Source of the DNA: Candidatus Siliceabacter maunaloa
GTDB lineage: Bacteria; Actinomycetota; Thermoleophilia; Solirubrobacterales; Solirubrobacteraceae
Length of the DNA stretch: 64,000 bases
Direction of reading: 5' to 3'
Assembly (NCBI GenBank): GCA_024330185.1
Contig: JANDLV010000003.1
Location: forward strand, 62,001-126,000
Shown here: positions 7,743 through 63,862 of the stretch, one piece after another
Position numbering within the stretch: position 1 is the stretch's first letter
Layout of the letters: every line of letters starts with the position of its first letter
The notes under the pieces: generated by a model
Databases searched by the model: none
Told to the model about the DNA's origin: nothing
What the model saw: only the letters and a program-made list of their open reading frames with translations
Made by a program: the position numbers and the translations under genes

Positions 7743-8753
7743 TTACGACGCGGCCTTGGAGCGCGAGGGCGCCTTCTTGGCGCCGCCGGACGAGCTCTTC
7801 GCCCCCGACGAACCCTTCCCCCCCGGGGAGCCCTTCGCCCCCGAGGAGCCCTTCGCCCCCGACGAGCCCTTGCCGCCACCCTTCTTCGCGCCCCCGCCCG
7901 ACCCGTCGCCCTTCTTCGCTCGCGTCGGGGGCGTCTTCCCGGCGCTCCCGCCGTTGCCCTCCGAGCCCTCGCGCGAGCGGACCTGGTCGAGGCTGGCCTT
8001 CAGGGCGGCCATGAGGTCGGGCACCGGCTCGGGCTCGTCGGCCACGGGCTGCACCGCGATCTCCTCGCCCTGGGCCTTGCGCTCGATGAGCTCGAGGACC
8101 TCGTCGCGGTAGGTGTCGCGGTACTTGTCGGGCTGGAAGGGGCCGGCCAGCGAGTCGATGAGCTGGCGCGCCATGTCGACCTCGCGCTGCGTCGTCTCGA
8201 TGTCGTCGGCGGCGGGCACCTCGTCCAGGCGGCCCGCGTCGACCACCTCGTCGGCGAAGACCATGGTGGCCATGGCCAGCACCTCGCCCAGAGGCCGGAT
8301 GGCCACGAGCTGCTGCTTGGAGCGGATGACCACCCGAGCGACGGCCACCTTCCCGGCGTCGCGCATGGCCTCGACCAGGAGGCGGTAGGGCTTGGCGCCA
8401 CCCTGGGCGGGCGCCAGGTAGTAGGGGTGGTCGTAGTAGATCGGGTCGATCTCCTCGAGGTCGACGAAGTCCTCGATGTCGATGGTCTTGGTCTTCTTGG
8501 GGTCCAGGGCCTCGAGCTCGCCCGGCTCGACGACCACGTAGCGGTCGGGCGTCAGCTCGTAGCCCTTGACCAGATCCTCGTAGGCGACCTCATCGCCGGT
8601 CGTCGGGTCGACGCGCCGCTGCTGGATGCGCACGCCGGTCTTAGCGTTGAGCTGGTGGAAGCGCACGGTCTTGCGCTGCACGGCGGAGTACAGCTTCACG
8701 GGCACGGTGACCAGCCCGAAGGAGATCGCGCCGGTCCAGATCGAACGGGGCAT
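7743..8753 (-). CDS. ku: Non-homologous end joining protein Ku
   Basis: Bacterial Ku forms a homodimeric ring on double-strand ends and recruits LigD. The core starts with MPRSIWTGAISFGLVTVPVKL, the usual Ku N-terminus, which fixes the start at 8753. KGYELTPDRYVVVEPGELEAL and the DPIYYDHPYYLAP strand follow. Residues 260 onward form a long low-complexity tail of alternating K, G and S with repeats of the GSSGAKG type. Lys-rich tails are known in actinobacterial Ku and help DNA threading, but this one is long at roughly 75 residues. No ligD lies in the window. The gene appears to form a unit with the downstream topIB. Confidence 0.95.
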   Translation of the reverse strand: MPRSIWTGAISFGLVTVPVKLYSAVQRKTVRFHQLNAKTGVRIQQRRVDPTTGDEVAYEDLVKGYELTPDRYVVVEPGELEALDPKKTKTIDIEDFVDLEEIDPIYYDHPYYLAPAQGGAKPYRLLVEAMRDAGKVAVARVVIRSKQQLVAIRPLGEVLAMATMVFADEVVDAGRLDEVPAADDIETTQREVDMARQLIDSLAGPFQPDKYRDTYRDEVLELIERKAQGEEIAVQPVADEPEPVPDLMAALKASLDQVRSREGSEGNGGSAGKTPPTRAKKGDGSGGGAKKGGGKGSSGAKGSSGAKGSPGGKGSSGAKSSSGGAKKAPSRSKAAS

Positions 8754-37104: not shown

Positions 37105-38799
37105 ATGCGCCATCCAGCCAGCTCCCTACGCCTGTCCGACGTGCTGGCCGGCCGCGTCGCGCCCGCCGCACTGGTCGCCTTGGCCGCCTTCACCCTCGGC
37201 GCAGCGCTGGGCGCCGCCCACGTGCCCCCCGAGCGCGAGGTCGCCCAGCGCTATCTGGACGCCTGGCAGCGCGGCGACCACGCGACCATGCACGGCCTGC
37301 TGACGCCCGAGGCGCGACGCGCCGTCGGGCCGCAGGAGTTCCGGGCCGCCATCCGCGGCGCCGCGACCACCGCCACGGCCACACGCCTGGAGTTCGACGA
37401 CCTCGAGCTCGCCGACGGCACGGTCAGCGCCTCGGCCGCCGTGCCCACGCGGGTGTTCGGCGATCTGGCCCTCGAGGTGCGCCTGACGGTGGAGGAGGCC
37501 GACGGCGAGCAGCGCATCGCCTGGCGCCCCCACCACGCCTTCCCCGGCCTGCGCCCCGGTGAGCGCCTCTCGCGCGACACGCGGCTGCCCGAGCGCGGGG
37601 CCCTGCTGGCCCGCGACCGCACGCAGCTCGCCGCGGGGCCGCTGCGTACCTCGGAGCTCGGCGTGGCCGCGGCCCCGGTGGTCGGCGAGCTGGGCGCCAT
37701 CCCGCGCGAGCGCGCCGACCGCCTGCGGGCCCTGGGCTGGCCGGCCGATGCGCAGGTCGGCGTCAGCGGGCTGGAGCGCGCCTTCGACGAGCGCGTGGCC
37801 GGCCGGCCCGGCGGCGATCTGCTGGCCGGCGAGCGCGTCCTGGCCTCCGCCCGGCCGAGCCCCGGAGAGGACGTGCGCACCTCGGTCTCCGTGGCGGTGC
37901 AGCAGGCCGCCGTCGAGGCGCTGGCCGGCCGCCTGGGCGCCATCGTGGCGCTCGATCCCGCGACCGGGGAGGTGCTGGCCAGCTCGGGCATCGGCCTGGA
38001 GGGGCTGCAGCCGCCCGGCTCCACCTTCAAGGTCGTCACGCTGGCCGGCGCCCTGGAGGCGGGGATCACCGGGACCGACCGCCGCTACGAGCCGATGACC
38101 TCGGCCACGCTGGAGGGCGTAGAGCTGCAGAACGCCAACGGCGCGCTGTGCGGCGGGACCCTGCTGGAGACCTTCGCGCAGTCCTGCAACTCGGTCTACG
38201 CGCCGATGGGAGCGCAGCTCGGCGCTCAGCGTCTGGTCGAGGCGGCCGGGGACTTCGGCTTCAACGCCCCGCCGGGCGTCGAAGGCGCCGCCGTATCCAC
38301 CCTCCCGCCGGCGGGCGAGATCGGCGACGACCTGGCGGTGGGCGCCACCGCCATCGGCCAGGGTCGTGTGCAGGCGACGGCGTTGCAGATGGCGCTGGTC
38401 TCGGCCGTCATCGCGCGCGGGGGAGTGCTGCCCCGGGCCAGCTTCGAGGTCGGCGGCTCGGGCGTCGAGGGCGAGCGCACCATGCCTGCCGAGGTCGCGC
38501 GGACCGTCGAGCGGCTGATGGTCGCCGTCGTGGAGGAGGGCACCGGCGGCGCCGCGGCCATCCCCGGGGTGCGCGTGGCCGGCAAGACGGGCACGGCCGA
38601 GCTGCGCGCCACCCAGGGCGAGTGCCCACCCGTGTGCGGCAGCGACCCCACCGACACCAGCGCCTGGTTCCTCGCCCACGCGCCGGCCGGGGACCCCGAG
38701 GTCGCGGTGGCCGCGCTGCTGGTGCAGGGCGGCAGCGGCGGGGAGACCGCTGCGCCCGCCGCCGCGGAGGTGCTGCGCGCGGCGCTGGAGACGGAGTAG
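37105..38799 (+). CDS. Class B penicillin-binding protein (transpeptidase)
   Basis: A 564-residue cell-wall transpeptidase. One N-terminal helix (LVALAAFTLGAALGAAHV) anchors it; residues 40-140 form an NTF2-like MecA_N domain (VAQRYLDAWQRGDHATMHGL), then a dimerisation domain (RGALLARDR). The catalytic motifs are SxxK in PPGSTFKVVTL (Ser306, Lys309), SxN as SCN at 360-362 and KTG in VAGKTGTAEL (Lys494). It makes peptide cross-links in peptidoglycan; the overall plan matches PbpA/MecA-type proteins. It is divergent from the MarP-like gene and is followed by the repeat array at 38803. Confidence 0.93.
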   Translation: MRHPASSLRLSDVLAGRVAPAALVALAAFTLGAALGAAHVPPEREVAQRYLDAWQRGDHATMHGLLTPEARRAVGPQEFRAAIRGAATTATATRLEFDDLELADGTVSASAAVPTRVFGDLALEVRLTVEEADGEQRIAWRPHHAFPGLRPGERLSRDTRLPERGALLARDRTQLAAGPLRTSELGVAAAPVVGELGAIPRERADRLRALGWPADAQVGVSGLERAFDERVAGRPGGDLLAGERVLASARPSPGEDVRTSVSVAVQQAAVEALAGRLGAIVALDPATGEVLASSGIGLEGLQPPGSTFKVVTLAGALEAGITGTDRRYEPMTSATLEGVELQNANGALCGGTLLETFAQSCNSVYAPMGAQLGAQRLVEAAGDFGFNAPPGVEGAAVSTLPPAGEIGDDLAVGATAIGQGRVQATALQMALVSAVIARGGVLPRASFEVGGSGVEGERTMPAEVARTVERLMVAVVEEGTGGAAAIPGVRVAGKTGTAELRATQGECPPVCGSDPTDTSAWFLAHAPAGDPEVAVAALLVQGGSGGETAAPAAAEVLRAALETE

Positions 38800-38802
38800 G
38801 AG

Positions 38803-38941
38803 TTTCGCCTTCGGTCTCCGGACCCGGAGAATAAGGCTTTCGCCTTCGGTCCTCTCAAGTTCGGACAGAAGGGTTTCGCCTTCGGTCCTCTCAAGTTCGG
38901 ACCTACGGCGACGTTAGTTAGACAGACCTCCGGCGACGTCA
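38803..38941. repeat. Intergenic repeat array with GAAA-capped hairpins (3 copies)
   Basis: Read on the minus strand, GTCCGAACTTGAGAGGAC followed by CGAAGGCGAAA occurs at 38900-38874 and 38866-38840 (approximate ends) and a short variant (GGTCCGGAGACC, CGAAGGCGAAA) at 38826-38803. ACGTCGCCGG/TAGGTC modules precede them. Each copy can form a GGUCC/GGACC stem and an AAGGC-GAAA-GCCTT-type hairpin. The module edge CGACGTCA supplies the TGA stop of the lipoprotein gene. Another copy is at 59301-59348. Confidence 0.8.
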
Positions 38942-39508
38942 GACGTCGAGGCTGATTTCGGCCTCGACCGGGTCGGTCTCCGGGCCCTCGATGATGAGCT
39001 CGAAGGGCCGGTTCTGCAGCGACGAGATCGGGACCTTGAAGAGGATGAGCGCGCCGCCGATGGGCCCCTCGTCAGCGGGGCTGCCCACCGGCGGGAAGAC
39101 GTCCCCGGGGGCCACGAGCACCGGTTCCTCCACCGGCCAGTCGAACTGGTTCTCGGGGCCCAGCGGGAGCGGGAAGAACTCGTTCTCCTGGCTGTCGAGG
39201 ACCTCGAACTCGGTCGCGGTGGGCTGCGGCTGGTCGCTGGGGTTGTTGGCCCGCAGGAAGATCGCGAACCACGCCTCGCCGGGCTCGAGATCCTGGCGCC
39301 CCGCCGGGAGCCCGCTCAGGTAGGGCTGGTCGGCGGGGTCGGAGGGATTGAGCTGTCGCGAGACCTGCACCTGGTACTGCAGCTCGCTGAGGTCGACGTA
39401 GAGGCCCTCCGTCTCGGCCTCGAGGACCTGGTCGGGCCGACCGCAGGCGGCGAGGGCCATGGCGGCCAGCGCCACGAGCAACAGGAGGACGGGGCGGCGC
39501 AGGCGCAT
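38939..39508 (-). CDS. Putative lipoprotein of unknown function
   Basis: An exported lipoprotein of about 189 residues. MRLRRPVLLLLVALAAMALAAC is a textbook lipoprotein signal with the lipid-modified Cys after LAA. The mature part looks like a beta-sandwich domain (AWFAIFLRANNPSDQ, FEVLDSQENEFFPLPLGPEN, GALILFKVPISSLQNRPFEL) similar in feel to DUF4352-type extracytoplasmic modules. A GTG at 39541 that overlaps the SRPBCC stop is an alternative start. The stop codon is provided by the intergenic repeat element. Confidence 0.8.
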   Translation of the reverse strand: MRLRRPVLLLLVALAAMALAACGRPDQVLEAETEGLYVDLSELQYQVQVSRQLNPSDPADQPYLSGLPAGRQDLEPGEAWFAIFLRANNPSDQPQPTATEFEVLDSQENEFFPLPLGPENQFDWPVEEPVLVAPGDVFPPVGSPADEGPIGGALILFKVPISSLQNRPFELIIEGPETDPVEAEISLDV

Positions 39509-39537
39509 CGAGCCGGTCAGTCTACGGAGCCGTGGGC

Positions 39538-40074
39538 TCACACGTGCGCGTCGAAGCGGAACGCGCTGGCCGGCTTGCGCGGGCCGCCGGCGATGGTGGC
39601 CCGCGTGCCGCGGTCGCGGTCATCCTCGGCGATCGCGCGCAGGCGGCGCAGCGCCCTGCCCCAGCCGCGCTTGGCCCATGCCCTCTGGCCGAGCGCCTCG
39701 GAGAGGCGATCGGTGGCGGTGGCGGCAGCGGTCTGCGCGGTGACCTCGACGCGCGTCACCCCGTCCGCGCCGCTCTCGAGCGACCAGACGGTCGTCGAGC
39801 TGATGCCGTTGAACATGCCACCACGGCCCCGGGCCACGATCCGCCGCGGCGGATCGACCTCGACCAGCGCCATGTCCGCCCAGCCGTAGCGGGTGAGGCG
39901 CCGGGTGCCCTTGAAGCGCGCTCCCGCTCCCGTGCCGTAGCTGTCCTCGCGCGTCAGACGCCAGTCCGTGAGGAAGTGGTCGCAGAACTCGGGGTGGTTG
40001 GCCACGTCGGCGAGGTAGTCGAACAGCTCCTCACGTGGCCTGGCGATGTCGATCGAGACGGTCACGGGGTTCAT
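39538..40074 (-). CDS. SRPBCC (polyketide cyclase/START-like) protein
   Basis: A 178-residue protein. VTVSIDIARPREELFDYLAD, followed by NHPEFCDHFLTDWRLTR, is the typical start of SRPBCC proteins, which form a deep hydrophobic pocket for lipids or ring compounds. The strand ISSTTVWSLESGADGVTRVE supports the fold. The last 50 residues are basic (WAKRGWGRALRRLRAIAEDD) and lie outside the core. No substrate can be named. Its stop overlaps an alternative GTG start of the lipoprotein gene. Confidence 0.85.
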   Translation of the reverse strand: MNPVTVSIDIARPREELFDYLADVANHPEFCDHFLTDWRLTREDSYGTGAGARFKGTRRLTRYGWADMALVEVDPPRRIVARGRGGMFNGISSTTVWSLESGADGVTRVEVTAQTAAATATDRLSEALGQRAWAKRGWGRALRRLRAIAEDDRDRGTRATIAGGPRKPASAFRFDAHV

Positions 40075-59300: not shown

Positions 59301-59348
59301 AAGGCTTTCGCCTTCGGTCCTCTCAAGTTCGGACCTCCGGCGACGTCA
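59301..59348. repeat. Copy of the dispersed hairpin repeat
   Basis: AAGGCTTTCGCCTTCGGTCC and the following TCTCAAGTTCGGACC match the unit in the array at 38803-38941. On the minus strand it starts with the TGA stop of the SnoaL gene, then CGTCGCCGG, a GGTCC/GGACC stem and GAAGGC-GAAA-GCCTTC, a perfect 6-bp tetraloop hairpin. Confidence 0.85.
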
Positions 59349-59798
59349 CTTCAGCTTGCCGGCCATCTTGTCGCCCAGGCCCTGCTTGGGCTCGGCGCCG
59401 AGCTGGCTCATGATGCCCAGCTCGTCGGTGCTGCCCCAGCGCTCGACGATCTGGGCGTTCTCGAAGCGCCCGATCTGAACGCCGCGGACCTCGATCCTCT
59501 TGCCAGTGGGCGCGATGCCCTGGAACTCGCCGTCGTGGGTGCCGGTCAACGTGTAGGCGATGACCACATGGGTGTCGTCGGCGACCATGTGGGCGGGCTC
59601 GATGTGGGCGTCGGGGAACGCAGCGCCCAGTGTCTTGAAGAACGTGCGAAAACCCTCGCGGCCGGGTCCCTGCCCGGGTGCGGGGTCGTGGTCGACGGCG
59701 TCCTGCGCGAAGAGCTGGTCGACACCTGCGTCCAGGTCGCCGGAGTTGATCTTCTCGGCAGCCTGCTCCTGCGTGGCGATGTTGGCGTCTCGGGACAT
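59346..59798 (-). CDS. SnoaL-like/NTF2-fold protein
   Basis: A 150-residue alpha+beta barrel protein of the SnoaL/ester-cyclase type: QEQAAEKINSGDLDAGVDQL, PGREGFRTFFKTLGAAFPDA, VIAYTLTGTHDGEFQGIAPT and the Asp/Glu-rich IVERWGSTDELGIMSQLG. Many of these act on polyketide or stress-linked small molecules; none can be named here. AAGGAG lies 6 bases before the ATG. Its stop codon is part of the dispersed repeat. Confidence 0.85.
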   Translation of the reverse strand: MSRDANIATQEQAAEKINSGDLDAGVDQLFAQDAVDHDPAPGQGPGREGFRTFFKTLGAAFPDAHIEPAHMVADDTHVVIAYTLTGTHDGEFQGIAPTGKRIEVRGVQIGRFENAQIVERWGSTDELGIMSQLGAEPKQGLGDKMAGKLK

Positions 59799-59875
59799 GG
59801 ATCTCCTTGGTGGTTTACGCGCGGATGTCCTGAGGTTCCCCGCGAGGACCGCAGAACACACGAGGAGACGGTCGC

Positions 59876-60313
59876 TCACGCGCCAAGGGCACGGATCGCG
59901 GCGGCGTCCAATGGGTCGACGCGCTCGAGCCCCGGTATGCCGTCGAAGGCGCGGTCGGCACTGACGATCGCGTCGATGCCACGGTTCAGGGCCGCGGCGG
60001 CGTAGACCGCATCGAGCGGGTCGAGCCGGTCGTGGCCGGCGTAGAGGTCGAGGGCTGCGGTGAGGTCAGACCGCGTCACCTCGTGCAGGATGAGCGCGGC
60101 TGCAAGACCCGCAGCGTCGGAGGCGGATCGACCTCGGTGCCGCGTCTGTCGCCAGCGCTGCTGGCAGAACTCCTGGACCAACGCGGTGCTGGCCTCGCCA
60201 CGAACCAGTTCGTCACGCTGGCCGGCCACCAGCGCACGGCATGGCTCTCTATAGGGATGCTTGGCGCCCAAGGCGTAGACGAACACGTTCGTGTCGTAGA
60301 GGAAGCGTCTCAC
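59876..60313 (-). CDS. PIN-domain ribonuclease toxin (VapC-type)
   Basis: A 145-residue PIN toxin. Acidic active-site residues are in FLYDTNVFVYALG (first Asp), ASTALVQEFCQQ (Glu), HDRLDPLDAVYAAAA (Asp pair) and DAIVSADRAFDGI (last Asp). It should cut tRNA or other RNA when not bound by antitoxin. GTG 60313 lies in the antitoxin stop (GTGA overlap). It forms a full pair with the RHH protein upstream and sits between hom and thrC. Confidence 0.88.
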   Translation of the reverse strand: MRRFLYDTNVFVYALGAKHPYREPCRALVAGQRDELVRGEASTALVQEFCQQRWRQTRHRGRSASDAAGLAAALILHEVTRSDLTAALDLYAGHDRLDPLDAVYAAAALNRGIDAIVSADRAFDGIPGLERVDPLDAAAIRALGA

Positions 60314-60683: not shown

Positions 60684-61919
60684 TCAGGTGAACTCCTCCT
60701 CGATGACCCGGATCGCCCGGGGGCGCGCGCGGACGAACTCCAGGCGGGCGATGAGCTCCAGGGCGGCGAAGAAGCGCGACTCCGCCAGCGGGTGGACGAC
60801 CATCACCAGGCGGGCCTTCTCCCCCAGCCCCTTCTGCACGACCGACTTGATCGAGGCCCCCTGCATGCCCAGCACCTGGGCGACCTGCGCGAGCACGCCC
60901 GGGCGGTCGGCGACCTCGAGGTGCAGGTAGAAGGCCGACGCCACGTCCTGCACGACCTCCAGCGACGCCGTCGGCTCGGGGGTGGAGGCGGGCGGGATCA
61001 TGGCGCTGATCACGTCGCCCAGCACGGCGCTGGCCGTCTGTGGGCCGCCCGCGCCCGGTCCGGACATGGTGATCTCGGTGATGTCGGGCGACTCCACGGT
61101 GACCGCGTTGTAGGGCCCGTTGACGCTGGCCAGTGGGTGACCCGGATACAGGAAGGCGGGGTGCACGCGCACGTTGAGCCCGCCGTCGACGCGCTCGGCC
61201 GTGCCGATGAGCTTGAGGCTCAGGCCCAGCTCGCGGGCGTACTCCAGGTCGTCGGGAGCGATGTGCTCGATGCCCTCGAAGCGCACCTGGTCGAGGTGGA
61301 CCGGGGTCGCGAAGGCCAGGCGGGCCAGGATGGCCATCTTGGCCGCGGCATCCTCGCCGCTGACGTCCTCGGTGGGGTCCGACTCGGCGTAGCCCAGGCG
61401 CTGGGCCTCGGCCAGCACCGTCGCGTAGGGCGCACCGGTGCGGGCCATCTCGCTGAGGATGAAGTTGGTGGTGCCGTTGACGATGCCGTGCAGGCGCTCG
61501 ACGTGCGCGGCGGCCAGCGACTCCTGCAGCACCCGGATGACCGGCACGACACCGGCCACCGCGGCCTCGAAGCGAAGCTGCACCCCGTGCTCGCGCGCCG
61601 CCGCCCACAGCTCCTCGCCGTGGCGGCTGAGGATCTGCTTGTTGGCGGTGACCACGTGGCGCCCGGCGGCCATCGCGGCCAGGACGTGCTCGCGTGCGGG
61701 GTCCACGCCGCCCATGACCTCCACGATCAGGTCGCTGTCGGCGAGGATCTGCGCGAAGTCGCCCCGTGAGCGCGTGAGCACGCCGGCGACGCGGGGACGC
61801 AGCCCGGTGGTGGCCTCGATCTCGCCGGCGCGCCGCTCGAGCAGCGTGGCGAACGCTCCGCCCACCGTCCCGTGGCCCAGCAGGCCGACACGGAAGTCGC
61901 CCTGACCGGGGGCGCTCAC
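60684..61919 (-). CDS. hom: Homoserine dehydrogenase with ACT domain
   Basis: A 411-residue enzyme that reduces aspartate semialdehyde to homoserine. NAD(P) motif VGLLGHGTVGGAFATLLERR, VMGGVDPAREHVLAAMAAG, catalytic part VTANKQILSRHGEELWAAA and GIVNGTTNFILSEMARTG, and a C-terminal ACT domain (HLEVADRPGVLAQVAQVLGM) for threonine feedback. The GTG start overlaps the stop of the upstream PIN toxin gene (GTGA), so its translation is tied to a toxin gene. It feeds thrB/thrC and methionine. Confidence 0.95.
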   Translation of the reverse strand: MSAPGQGDFRVGLLGHGTVGGAFATLLERRAGEIEATTGLRPRVAGVLTRSRGDFAQILADSDLIVEVMGGVDPAREHVLAAMAAGRHVVTANKQILSRHGEELWAAAREHGVQLRFEAAVAGVVPVIRVLQESLAAAHVERLHGIVNGTTNFILSEMARTGAPYATVLAEAQRLGYAESDPTEDVSGEDAAAKMAILARLAFATPVHLDQVRFEGIEHIAPDDLEYARELGLSLKLIGTAERVDGGLNVRVHPAFLYPGHPLASVNGPYNAVTVESPDITEITMSGPGAGGPQTASAVLGDVISAMIPPASTPEPTASLEVVQDVASAFYLHLEVADRPGVLAQVAQVLGMQGASIKSVVQKGLGEKARLVMVVHPLAESRFFAALELIARLEFVRARPRAIRVIEEEFT

Positions 61920-62302
61920 CACACGGCCACCGAGCGGCCCTGCTTGCGCAGCCGCCCGTCCTTGGTCACGAGCGTGAGGCCGTTCTCGACGGCAGTGGCG
62001 TAGATGAGCCGGTCGGCGGGATCGCCCGGGAACGACGCGGGCAGGCTGACGGCGGTGTCGGCGATCGCCGGCGTGATGGCGATCGTCTGCACCTGGGCCG
62101 CGAGCTGATCGAGCCACGAGCGGATCGGGATGGCGACGATGATGCGCTCGTTGCGCGCCAGCCAGGCGAGCTCGAACCAGGTGATGGCGGCGACGGCCAG
62201 CTCGTCGGCCCGAAGCAGCAGTGCCGCGGCGCGGGCGCTCAGCCGGGCCGGCTCGGCCGACCACCACTGCACGACGTGGGTGTCCAGCAGGACCCTGCTC
62301 AC
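61916..62302 (-). CDS. PIN-domain toxin (VapC-type), coupled to hom
   Basis: A 128-residue PIN toxin. Active-site acids lie in VLLDTHVVQWWSAEP, AAITWFELAWLARN, PGDPADRLIYATAVENG and LVTKDGRLRKQG. The DTH start and the WSAEPARLSARA helix fit the group paired with Phd/YefM-type antitoxins. GTG start overlaps the antitoxin stop, and its own stop overlaps the hom GTG. This places a toxin in the middle of the lysine/threonine gene run. Confidence 0.88.
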   Translation of the reverse strand: MSRVLLDTHVVQWWSAEPARLSARAAALLLRADELAVAAITWFELAWLARNERIIVAIPIRSWLDQLAAQVQTIAITPAIADTAVSLPASFPGDPADRLIYATAVENGLTLVTKDGRLRKQGRSVAVW

Positions 62303-62526
62303 CCGGCGTCCCAGGCGACGCCGGTGCCGAACAACTCCTCGTCGTCGACCGCACTGACGGCGATCCCGGCGAAGCGATCCCGCAGCGCGTGGGGGCCGGT
62401 GGCCGGCGTCAGGCGCGCAACGACGCGGCCGTGCTTGGTGATCTCGAGCTCCTCGCCGGCCGCCACGTCGTCGAGCAGGGTCAGGATCCGAGCCTTCGCC
62501 TCGGTAGCGGTCACTTTTCTGACCAT
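62299..62526 (-). CDS. Phd/YefM-type antitoxin
   Basis: A 75-residue antitoxin. RKVTATEAKARILTLLDDVA then GEELEITKHGRVVARLTPA is the Phd/YefM fold; the C-terminal part (DDEELFGTGVAWDAG) should wrap the PIN toxin. It starts 31 bases after lysA in the same direction and is coupled to the toxin by a GTGA overlap. Confidence 0.88.
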   Translation of the reverse strand: MVRKVTATEAKARILTLLDDVAAGEELEITKHGRVVARLTPATGPHALRDRFAGIAVSAVDDEELFGTGVAWDAG

Positions 62527-62557
62527 GGGGCGAGCATACCGGTCACCCAGGTCGACG

Positions 62558-63862
62558 TCAGGCCTCGCGGGCCAGGAGGTCGTCCAGGGTCTCGCGGCGC
62601 ACAGCGACGCGGGCGTCGCCGTCGCGGCACAGGATCACCGGCGGGCGCGGGACCCCGTTGTAGGTGTTGGCCATAGCGTGGCCGTAGGCGCCGGTGGCGG
62701 GCATGGCGACCACGTCGCCGGGGCGAGGGTCGGCCAGATGGGCGTCGTGGACCAGCACGTCGCCCGACTCGCAGTGCTTGCCGGCCAGCCTGCACGCGGC
62801 CTCGCCGCCGTGGCGGCCCACCACCTCGGCCTCGTAGGGCGCGCCGTAGAGCATCGGGCGCAGGTTGTCGGCCATGCCCCCGTCGACGGCGACCCAGGTG
62901 GACACGTTGCGCTTGACCGTCTGGACGGTGTAGAGGGTCACGCCCGCGTTGGCGGTCAGCGCGCGCCCTGGCTCGTCGAGGATCACCTTGCCCGCGCCCA
63001 GGTGCTCCTCCACCGCCCCCACCTTGGCGTCGACGTAGTCCTCGACCGAGGGCACCTGGTGGGCGGCTGTGTAGGCGACGCCCAGCCCCCCGCCGACGTC
63101 GATCACGGGGAGGTCATCGCCCAGGCCGTGGAGCATGGCGATGGCCGCACGGAAGGGCTCGAGGTCGAGGATCTGCGAGCCGATGTGAAGGTGCAGCCCG
63201 TCGAGCTGGAGGGCCGCAGAGCCGGCCAGGCGGTCGATCGCGCGGCGCGTGTCGCCCAGCGACAGCCCGAACTTGGAGTCCGACTGGCCCGTGGAGATCT
63301 TGTCGTGGGTGTCGCCGCGCACTCCCGGGGTGACGCGCAGCAGCACCCGCTGGCGCACGCCGCGTTCGCGCGCCAGGGCCTCGGTGCGCTCCAGGTCGTC
63401 CAGGCCATCGAGCACGATCAGCCCGATGCCGGCGTCCAGCGCCATGGCCAGCTCGGCGGCCGACTTGGCGTTGCCGTGCAGCAGGATCCGCTCCGGCGCG
63501 AAGCCCGCGCGCAGCGCGAGGTGCAACTCGCCGGAGGAGGCCACGTCGCAGCCCAGCCCCTCCTCGCCCAGGATGCGCAGCACGGCGGTGCACGGGAAGG
63601 CCTTGGAGGCGAAGAAGGTCTCGCTGCGCCCGGCGTGGCGCACAGCGAAGGCGTCGCGGAACGCACGCGCACGCTCACGCAGGTCGCCCTCAGCCACCAC
63701 GTAGGCGGGCGTCCCGAACTCCCGCGCGAGCTCCAGGGCGTCGCAGCCACCCACCTGCAGCACCCCCCGCTCGTCCAGCGCGCTGTGCGTGGGCCACACG
63801 TGGGAGAGCTGGCGGGAGGTCGTGGCGGCGGACACGGGAAGTCGGGGAGTATGCCGGGCCAT
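62558..63862 (-). CDS. lysA: Diaminopimelate decarboxylase
   Basis: A 434-residue PLP enzyme for the last step to lysine. The PLP Lys87 lies in ETFFASKAFPCTAVLRIL, HLHIGSQILDLEPF and DVGGGLGVAY form the phosphate site, and the second-domain Cys/Glu motif is in KHCESGDVLVHDAHL. The start MARHTPRLPVSAATT shares bases with the divergent gene; GTG 63835 is an alternative that would leave room for a promoter. It heads the run lysA, antitoxin, toxin, hom. Confidence 0.95.
   Translation of the reverse strand: MARHTPRLPVSAATTSRQLSHVWPTHSALDERGVLQVGGCDALELAREFGTPAYVVAEGDLRERARAFRDAFAVRHAGRSETFFASKAFPCTAVLRILGEEGLGCDVASSGELHLALRAGFAPERILLHGNAKSAAELAMALDAGIGLIVLDGLDDLERTEALARERGVRQRVLLRVTPGVRGDTHDKISTGQSDSKFGLSLGDTRRAIDRLAGSAALQLDGLHLHIGSQILDLEPFRAAIAMLHGLGDDLPVIDVGGGLGVAYTAAHQVPSVEDYVDAKVGAVEEHLGAGKVILDEPGRALTANAGVTLYTVQTVKRNVSTWVAVDGGMADNLRPMLYGAPYEAEVVGRHGGEAACRLAGKHCESGDVLVHDAHLADPRPGDVVAMPATGAYGHAMANTYNGVPRPPVILCRDGDARVAVRRETLDDLLAREA

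What the first reader, a model, noticed from the sequence alone, without database searches (positions are those of the whole stretch)
38803..38941. Dispersed hairpin element that supplies stop codons of neighbouring genes
The unit CGACGTCGCCGG-GTCCGAACTTGAGAGGAC-CGAAGGCGAAA (split for length) occurs three times here in whole or part and once at 59301-59348. In both loci the first bases form the TGA of the upstream minus-strand gene, and each copy can make a GGUCC/GGACC stem plus a GAAA tetraloop hairpin. A repeat that repeatedly lands at the very stop codon suggests an RNA 3'-end signal or a mobile element with a target preference.
Basis: partly seen in the sequence, partly recalled or inferred. 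Interest (0 to 1): 0.8.

Follow-up and report, generated by a model that had tools for sequence, protein, structure and literature searches.

The report
Mobile hairpin repeats carrying stop codons
The repeat is real: it belongs to a previously undescribed family of roughly 45-letter hairpin elements that have spread through one family of soil bacteria (Solirubrobacteraceae), that bring their own stop codon to the ends of genes, and that can also sit in frame inside working proteins.

Summary
The core occurs 75 times (54 exact) in the host genome, in 35 arrays of 1-5 head-to-tail units. The full unit (43 nt here, 45 nt in relatives) begins with a stop codon: TRA-CGTCG(N)CC-GNA-stem-CUUG-stem-GNA-GG(N)CGA-AA. 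A covariance model finds it in 19 Solirubrobacteraceae genomes (E at most 3e-8) and in none sampled outside that family. Nine of 12 tested pairs show compensatory double changes.

Two thirds of copies start at, or 0-15 nt after, a same-strand stop codon (6% for random TRACG sites). The stop codon (and, outside the host, the G before it) belongs to the element. In the sister species 24 orthologous gene ends lack it. Other copies are read in frame as about 15-residue insertions in Lon, HisF, GltB and RNase R, or as N-terminal leaders of CarA and Apt. One site, the atpG stop codon before atpD, is occupied in 11 genomes of 7 genera.

Best reading: a new family of translation-tolerant mobile palindromes resembling REP, RPE and MIRU repeats. 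No REP transposase (Y1_Tnp) was found in nine of eleven element-rich genomes checked. An RNA role at gene junctions is plausible but inferred.

The parts
59306..59348 (-). Complete 43-nt element (single copy)
   Evidence: Covariance model match 72.0 bits, E 1.3e-19; exact core
59346..59348 (-). First triplet TGA of the element = stop codon of the upstream minus-strand gene
   Evidence: ORF 59346-59879 ends here
59346..59879 (-). Gene closed by the element: SnoaL-like protein, 177 aa
   Evidence: Pfam PF07366, E 9.4e-33
38874..38916 (-). Complete 43-nt element beginning with TAA (not used as a stop)
   Evidence: Covariance model match 70.8 bits, E 3.1e-19
38838..38866 (-). Second, partial unit without the left end (GTCC...GGAC CGAAGGCGAAA)
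   Evidence: Exact core; 20 bits
38921..38941 (-). Left-end stub TGACGTCGCCGGAGGTCTGTC; its TGA (38939-38941) is the stop codon of the upstream gene
   Evidence: Sequence; ORF 38939-39541
38803..38824 (-). Right-end piece GGTCCGGAGACCGAAGGCGAAA, 3 nt from the stop codon of the convergent gene
   Evidence: Sequence
38939..39541 (-). Gene closed by the stub, 200 aa, no Pfam match
   Evidence: ortholog in the sister species ends with TAG and has no element there
37105..38799 (+). Convergent gene (penicillin-binding transpeptidase) on the other side of the array
   Evidence: Pfam PF00905, E 3.3e-40

Best explanation
This is a family of very small non-autonomous mobile palindromes of Solirubrobacteraceae, called here stop-headed palindromes. 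The intact unit is about 45 nt, with or without a short C/T-rich tail. It begins with TRA (preceded by G in relatives) and folds into a two-storey hairpin: outer stem UCGNCC/GGNCGA, 3x3 GNA/GNA internal loop, inner stem, CUUG-type loop (shown by covariation). Its sequence limits the damage of insertion. In one sense frame its first codon is a stop, so it can close an upstream gene. A second sense frame of the 45-nt unit has no stop; the third is usually open but closes where the right-hand GNA is GTA (about 9% of copies), and in the 43-nt host subtype a further frame meets TGA. The length of 15 codons keeps the reading frame, so copies can persist as N-terminal leaders or 15-residue insertions. 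Shown: conserved fold, stop codon belonging to the element, gene-end bias with orientation, lineage-specific bursts, empty sites, in-frame intragenic copies. Inferred: that it moves by transposition, possibly as a folded single strand handled by an enzyme provided in trans; that the gene-end bias reflects both target preference and selection; and that older copies at operon junctions act as 3'-end or inter-gene RNA hairpins.
For: 75 core copies in 35 arrays in the host; same architecture with other inner hairpins in relatives, restricted to one family. Covariation: 94.0% of cells paired against 83.5% shuffled, 9 of 12 pairs with double changes, 0 of 500 shuffles as high. 76 of 114 first copies at or just after a same-strand stop. 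Stop codon comes with the element: TAA 6 of 18 element stops against 7 of 157 control stops, p 6e-4; G before TRA in 96% outside the host. 24 gene ends empty in the sister species. Ten of 72 copies outside the host lie inside coding sequence, five in each orientation, as added peptides in HisF, GltB, RNase R, MurE and Lon; three in-frame tandem copies in the host's RNase R. N-terminal leaders in CarA, Apt and an AsnC-like protein.
Against: No enzyme was identified. No target-site duplication or exact boundary could be fixed, because no same-species comparison was available. Random insertion plus selection does not by itself explain why copies just after a host stop also point with the gene. 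The shared old sites (atpG-atpD in 7 genera) suggest more than neutral spread.
Confidence: 0.62

Rival explanations
1. A functional cis-acting RNA element at stop codons and operon junctions (mRNA 3'-end stabiliser, processing site, or control of termination and re-initiation) that spread by duplication because it is useful; the founder site could be atpG-atpD.
For: Conserved fold with compensatory changes; G.U without A.C at the most variable pair, favouring the sense RNA; strong sense orientation; the same junctions occupied in several genera; three of six single-hit genomes have their copy at atpG-atpD.
Against: Copies inside coding sequences in both orientations; unrelated host genes; congeners lacking the element at atpG-atpD; none of the 24 host gene ends has a same-orientation copy in the sister species; no divergent-promoter or consistent gene-class pattern.
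Confidence: 0.22
2. Transcription terminators that were duplicated around the genome.
For: Lie between convergent and co-directional genes, almost never between divergent ones; tail slightly T/C-rich, a few copies (such as G022) with TTTTT.
Against: No general U run (T at most 43% at any tail position); AA(A)CC separates stem and tail; in-frame copies inside HisF, Lon and RNase R and copies between atpG and atpD or inside carA and apt leaders would cut essential transcripts.
Confidence: 0.08
3. A GTAG-type REP family mobilised by a RAYT (REP-associated tyrosine transposase).
For: Similar size, palindromy, 3' intergenic position and clusters; known REPs also supply stop codons and occur inside ORFs (PMC3733652); GNAG flanks the inner stem.
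Against: No Y1_Tnp match in the host, G001, G077, G035, the single-contig G030, G074, G010, G018 or G009; no constant GTAG end; head-to-tail arrays. G027 and G008 do have Y1_Tnp genes, not shown to be flanked by the element.
Confidence: 0.05

Closest known systems
CGTC-tagged REPs, including Rickettsia RPE-4/RPE-6 and Neisseria dRS3 (Di Nocera et al. 2013, PMC3733652)
   Same: Small palindrome with CGTC near one end, mostly downstream of genes, some copies inside ORFs in frame, no dedicated transposase known.
   Different: Stop codon TRA before the CGTC; T and C of CGTC appear paired; 3x3 GNA/GNA internal loop; tail AA(A)CC rather than CCA; no AT/TA first two pairs; head-to-tail arrays rather than head-to-head dimers; Actinomycetota, a phylum not in that survey's list for CGTC repeats.
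GTAG-tagged REPs / RAYT system
   Same: Small dispersed palindromes at 3' ends; GTAG REP termini often provide a TAG stop codon to flanking ORFs (PMC3733652).
   Different: No GTAG terminus; no Y1_Tnp found in nine of eleven element-rich genomes checked; the leading stop codon can be TGA, TAA or TAG.
Mycobacterial interspersed repetitive units (MIRU; PMC12548453)
   Same: Apparently mobile repeat at gene junctions, head-to-tail arrays, inserted so that translation of neighbouring genes is kept.
   Different: About half the length (MIRU length from own knowledge); hairpin with covarying stems; also between convergent genes and deep inside proteins; MIRUs are described as inserting at start codons.

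Membership tests
GTAG REP / RAYT system | Unpaired GTAG at one end of the palindrome | tested here: not met
   End is TRACGTC; the GNAG next to the inner stem is internal and its N varies among all four bases
GTAG REP / RAYT system | Associated Y1_Tnp transposase (RAYT) in the genome | tested here: not met
   None in nine of eleven element-rich genomes, host included; G027 and G008 have Y1_Tnp genes
CGTC REP | CGTC motif at one end | tested here: met
   Nearly all copies read TRA-CGTC (84 of 92 with CG after the triplet)
CGTC REP | CGTC unpaired | tested here: inconclusive
   TC can pair with GA in all 60 sequences at U-A and 59 at C-G, but those pairs hardly vary, so covariation says nothing
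CGTC REP | 8-9 bp stem starting with A-T pairs, CCA tail | tested here: not met
   Two stems of 5-6 and 5-8 bp around a 3x3 loop; tail AA(A)CC
CGTC REP | Head-to-head dimers predominate | tested here: not met
   22 of 35 host arrays are head-to-tail multimers
RPE (in-frame protein-coding palindromes) | Copies inserted in frame in conserved protein genes | tested here: met
   HisF, Lon, GltB, RNase R, MurE compared with orthologs
RPE (in-frame protein-coding palindromes) | Sequence relation to rickettsial RPE families | not tested
   No RPE sequences were compared
MIRU | Sits at gene junctions, reading frame compatible with both neighbours | tested here: met
   CarA, Apt and AsnC-like leaders with overlapping stop/start; starts inferred, not measured
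MIRU | Mycobacterial MIRU sequence | not tested
   No MIRU sequence was compared
Intrinsic terminator | Stem followed directly by a U run | tested here: not met
   Tail composition: T never above 43% at any position; a few copies such as G022 have TTTTT
Rfam families | Match to a known RNA family | tested here: not met
   No gathering-level match in the window; no match over the element at E 5 in 16 loci

The most novel reading that the evidence does not exclude
A conserved regulatory RNA at the stop codon between atpG and atpD, perhaps adjusting the gamma:beta subunit ratio of ATP synthase, escaped from its operon and became a self-spreading palindrome whose leading stop codon and translatable frames let it settle at gene ends, at gene starts and inside proteins.
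Probability: 0.12. Interest if true: 0.82.

Novelty: new variant of a known kind. Interest (0 to 1): 0.62.

Why it matters
It would be a REP/RPE/MIRU-like family in a deep-branching actinobacterial class where I found none described, and it combines three separately known habits in one 45-nt sequence: supplying stop codons, sitting in frame inside proteins, and keeping translation across gene junctions. With a single-contig genome at hand (Svornostia abyssi, about 10 copies) it makes a long-standing question testable: whether transposase-less bacterial palindromes spread because they are harmless to translation or because they act as RNA elements. It also warns annotators: short peptides such as VDRRSELARTGGRN or TSPEVAGSGDRR in these proteins are element-derived.

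Tried and rejected
RAYT mobilisation: no Y1_Tnp in nine of eleven element-rich genomes. Known RNA family: no Rfam match. GAAA tetraloop hairpin as the conserved part: rejected, the base after CGAA(A) is mostly C outside the host. Host-derived stop codons (TRA as target only): rejected on TAA enrichment and the conserved preceding G. Shine-Dalgarno role of GGAGG: rejected by inspection, because the N of GNA varies freely. Viral origin: no exact match in viral contigs. A weak fourth site in the window (62494-62560) does not fold and was not counted. Literature: no paper in the held library joins Solirubrobacter with repetitive extragenic palindromic repeats. Exact target site: orthologs are too diverged around the insertions; the closest pair at atpG-atpD (G022 filled, G063 empty) differs by 54 nt net (a 57-nt stretch against TAA), direction undetermined.

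Full report
CHECK OF THE OBSERVATION. The 18-nt core is present three times in the window, against 0.05 expected, and 75 times at up to 3 mismatches (54 exact) in the 3.79-Mb host genome, against 2 for the reversed control. The copies form 35 arrays (13 single, the rest 2-5 units, head to tail, usually 36-47 nt apart). The first unit of an array nearly always reads TRA-CGTCGCCGNAG-GTCC...GGAC-CGNAGGCGAAA; later units usually lack the left end. In the window two units are complete (59306-59348 and 38874-38916); a partial unit, a left-end stub and a right-end piece complete the first locus.

WHAT IT IS BEYOND THE HOST. The exact core is missing from 60 relatives, but the ends recur with other inner hairpins. 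A covariance model built from 24 variants finds the element in 19 genomes of the same family at E at most 3e-8: 74 matches in the host, 22 in G077, 19 in G027, 15 in G001, 7-11 in G035, G030, G010, G074, G018 and G009, fewer in others. In a class-wide sample of 149 genomes all six with E at most 1e-4 belong to that family. Exact-pattern hits in named records place it in Solirubrobacteraceae (Svornostia abyssi, Candidatus Solirubrobacter pratensis).

STRUCTURE. On 60 aligned 45-nt variants, 94.0% of cells in the proposed pairs are standard pairs (83.5% after shuffling), 9 of 12 pairs show changes on both sides, and sliding the partners destroys the signal. The outer stem UCGNCC/GGNCGA and the inner stem flank a 3x3 GNA/GNA loop; the end loop is mostly CUUG, often next to tandem G.A pairs that are replaced by Watson-Crick pairs in other copies. 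At the most variable pair G.U occurs 12 times and A.C never, which favours the sense RNA strand, although some of this is shared ancestry. No Rfam family matches. The conserved CGAAA is not part of a conserved GNRA hairpin.

STOP CODONS. Of 114 first copies, 43 use their own TRA as the in-frame stop of the upstream gene and 33 begin 0-15 nt after a same-strand stop, together 67%; the figure is 0.6% for random positions, 6% for random TRACG sites and 7% for the same places on the other strand. The first triplet is TGA, TAA or TAG in 74 of 79 copies examined outside the 35 host core arrays, and never TGG. The stop codon comes with the element: TAA makes up 6 of 18 element stops but 7 of 157 other stops in the host, and outside the host the base before TRA is G in 96%. 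In the host, convergent genes on the far side also often end within the right end, several at the same offset.

MOBILITY. Twenty-four gene ends bearing host arrays were matched with orthologs in the only congeneric genome searched, G001. None has the element in that orientation, and the proteins usually end within a residue or so of the same place. At one of these places G001 carries its own subtype in the opposite orientation. Ten of 72 copies outside the host lie inside coding sequence, five on each strand. Comparison with orthologs shows added peptides of about 15 residues in HisF, GltB, RNase R and MurE, and in Lon of two species at the same linker but in opposite orientation. The host's RNase R carries three in-frame tandem copies (TSPEVAGSGDRG) at the site where its sister has one, so this site is shared by the two species and has expanded in one. 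At overlapping gene junctions the element forms the N-terminal leader of CarA, Apt and an AsnC-like protein (for example MSNVDRRSELARTGGRN); these starts were inferred, not measured. Gene names in this paragraph and the next are my reading of the translated sequences, apart from the window genes, which were checked against Pfam.

OLD SITES. Several junctions are shared between genera: atpG-atpD, pyrC-carA and hemB-AsnC-like. The atpG-atpD junction was examined in 52 genomes: 11, from 7 genera, carry the element, starting at or within a few nucleotides of the atpG stop codon (in G007 the complete copy follows partial ones). Congeners lack it in three of these genera. Of six genomes with a single strong hit, three (G004, G007, G022) have it there. 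This is either a retained functional copy or an insertion hot spot; I cannot yet tell.

MECHANISM. The most economical reading is a mobile palindrome tolerated by translation. In one sense frame the first codon stops; a second sense frame has no stop in the 45-nt unit, and the third is usually open but closes with TAG where the right-hand GNA is GTA (8 of 92 copies). The 45-nt length keeps the frame. The 43-nt host subtype has TGA in one further frame (used at L036 and L055) and is found mainly at gene ends. That it moves by transposition is inferred from presence/absence and from the insertions; the enzyme is unknown. Y1_Tnp was found in two of eleven element-rich genomes, G027 and G008. A function of the RNA is suggested by orientation, covariation and the old sites, and is untested.

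COMPARISON. Known REPs can supply stop codons and sit inside genes, and CGTC-tagged REPs lack a dedicated transposase (PMC3733652). MIRUs sit at gene junctions in a translation-compatible way (PMC12548453). The present family works like these but fails the defining features of GTAG REPs and several of those of CGTC REPs, so I class it as a new variant of a known kind.

LIMITS.

Noticed in passing
window 62494-62560 (-): The stop codon of a PLP-dependent decarboxylase gene reads TGACGTCGACC, like an element's left end, but the stretch does not fold and scores only 11 bits; a PIN-domain gene follows at 61916-62302.
   Followed up: partly
G000 contigs C46 (end), C49 (start), C31 and C73 (ends): Contigs of the host assembly break inside or close to element arrays; C46 and C49 carry the same array type at their ends and are probably neighbours.
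   Followed up: no
L248 (CAMCUD010000030.1): A public record titled Bifidobacterium breve carries the element and has the same length as contig C30 of the Solirubrobacteraceae genome G010, so the record appears to be mislabelled.
   Followed up: no
L206 and L196: Lon protease of two species carries the element in the same inter-domain linker but in opposite orientations, which suggests independent insertions at a tolerant spot.
   Followed up: partly
L341 440-560 (-), G000:C42: Three in-frame tandem copies inside the RNase R gene of the host, at the site where the sister species has one.
   Followed up: yes
window 7786-7877: Four tandem copies of an 18-nt coding repeat (38-nt reference copies at 18-nt spacing).
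   Followed up: no
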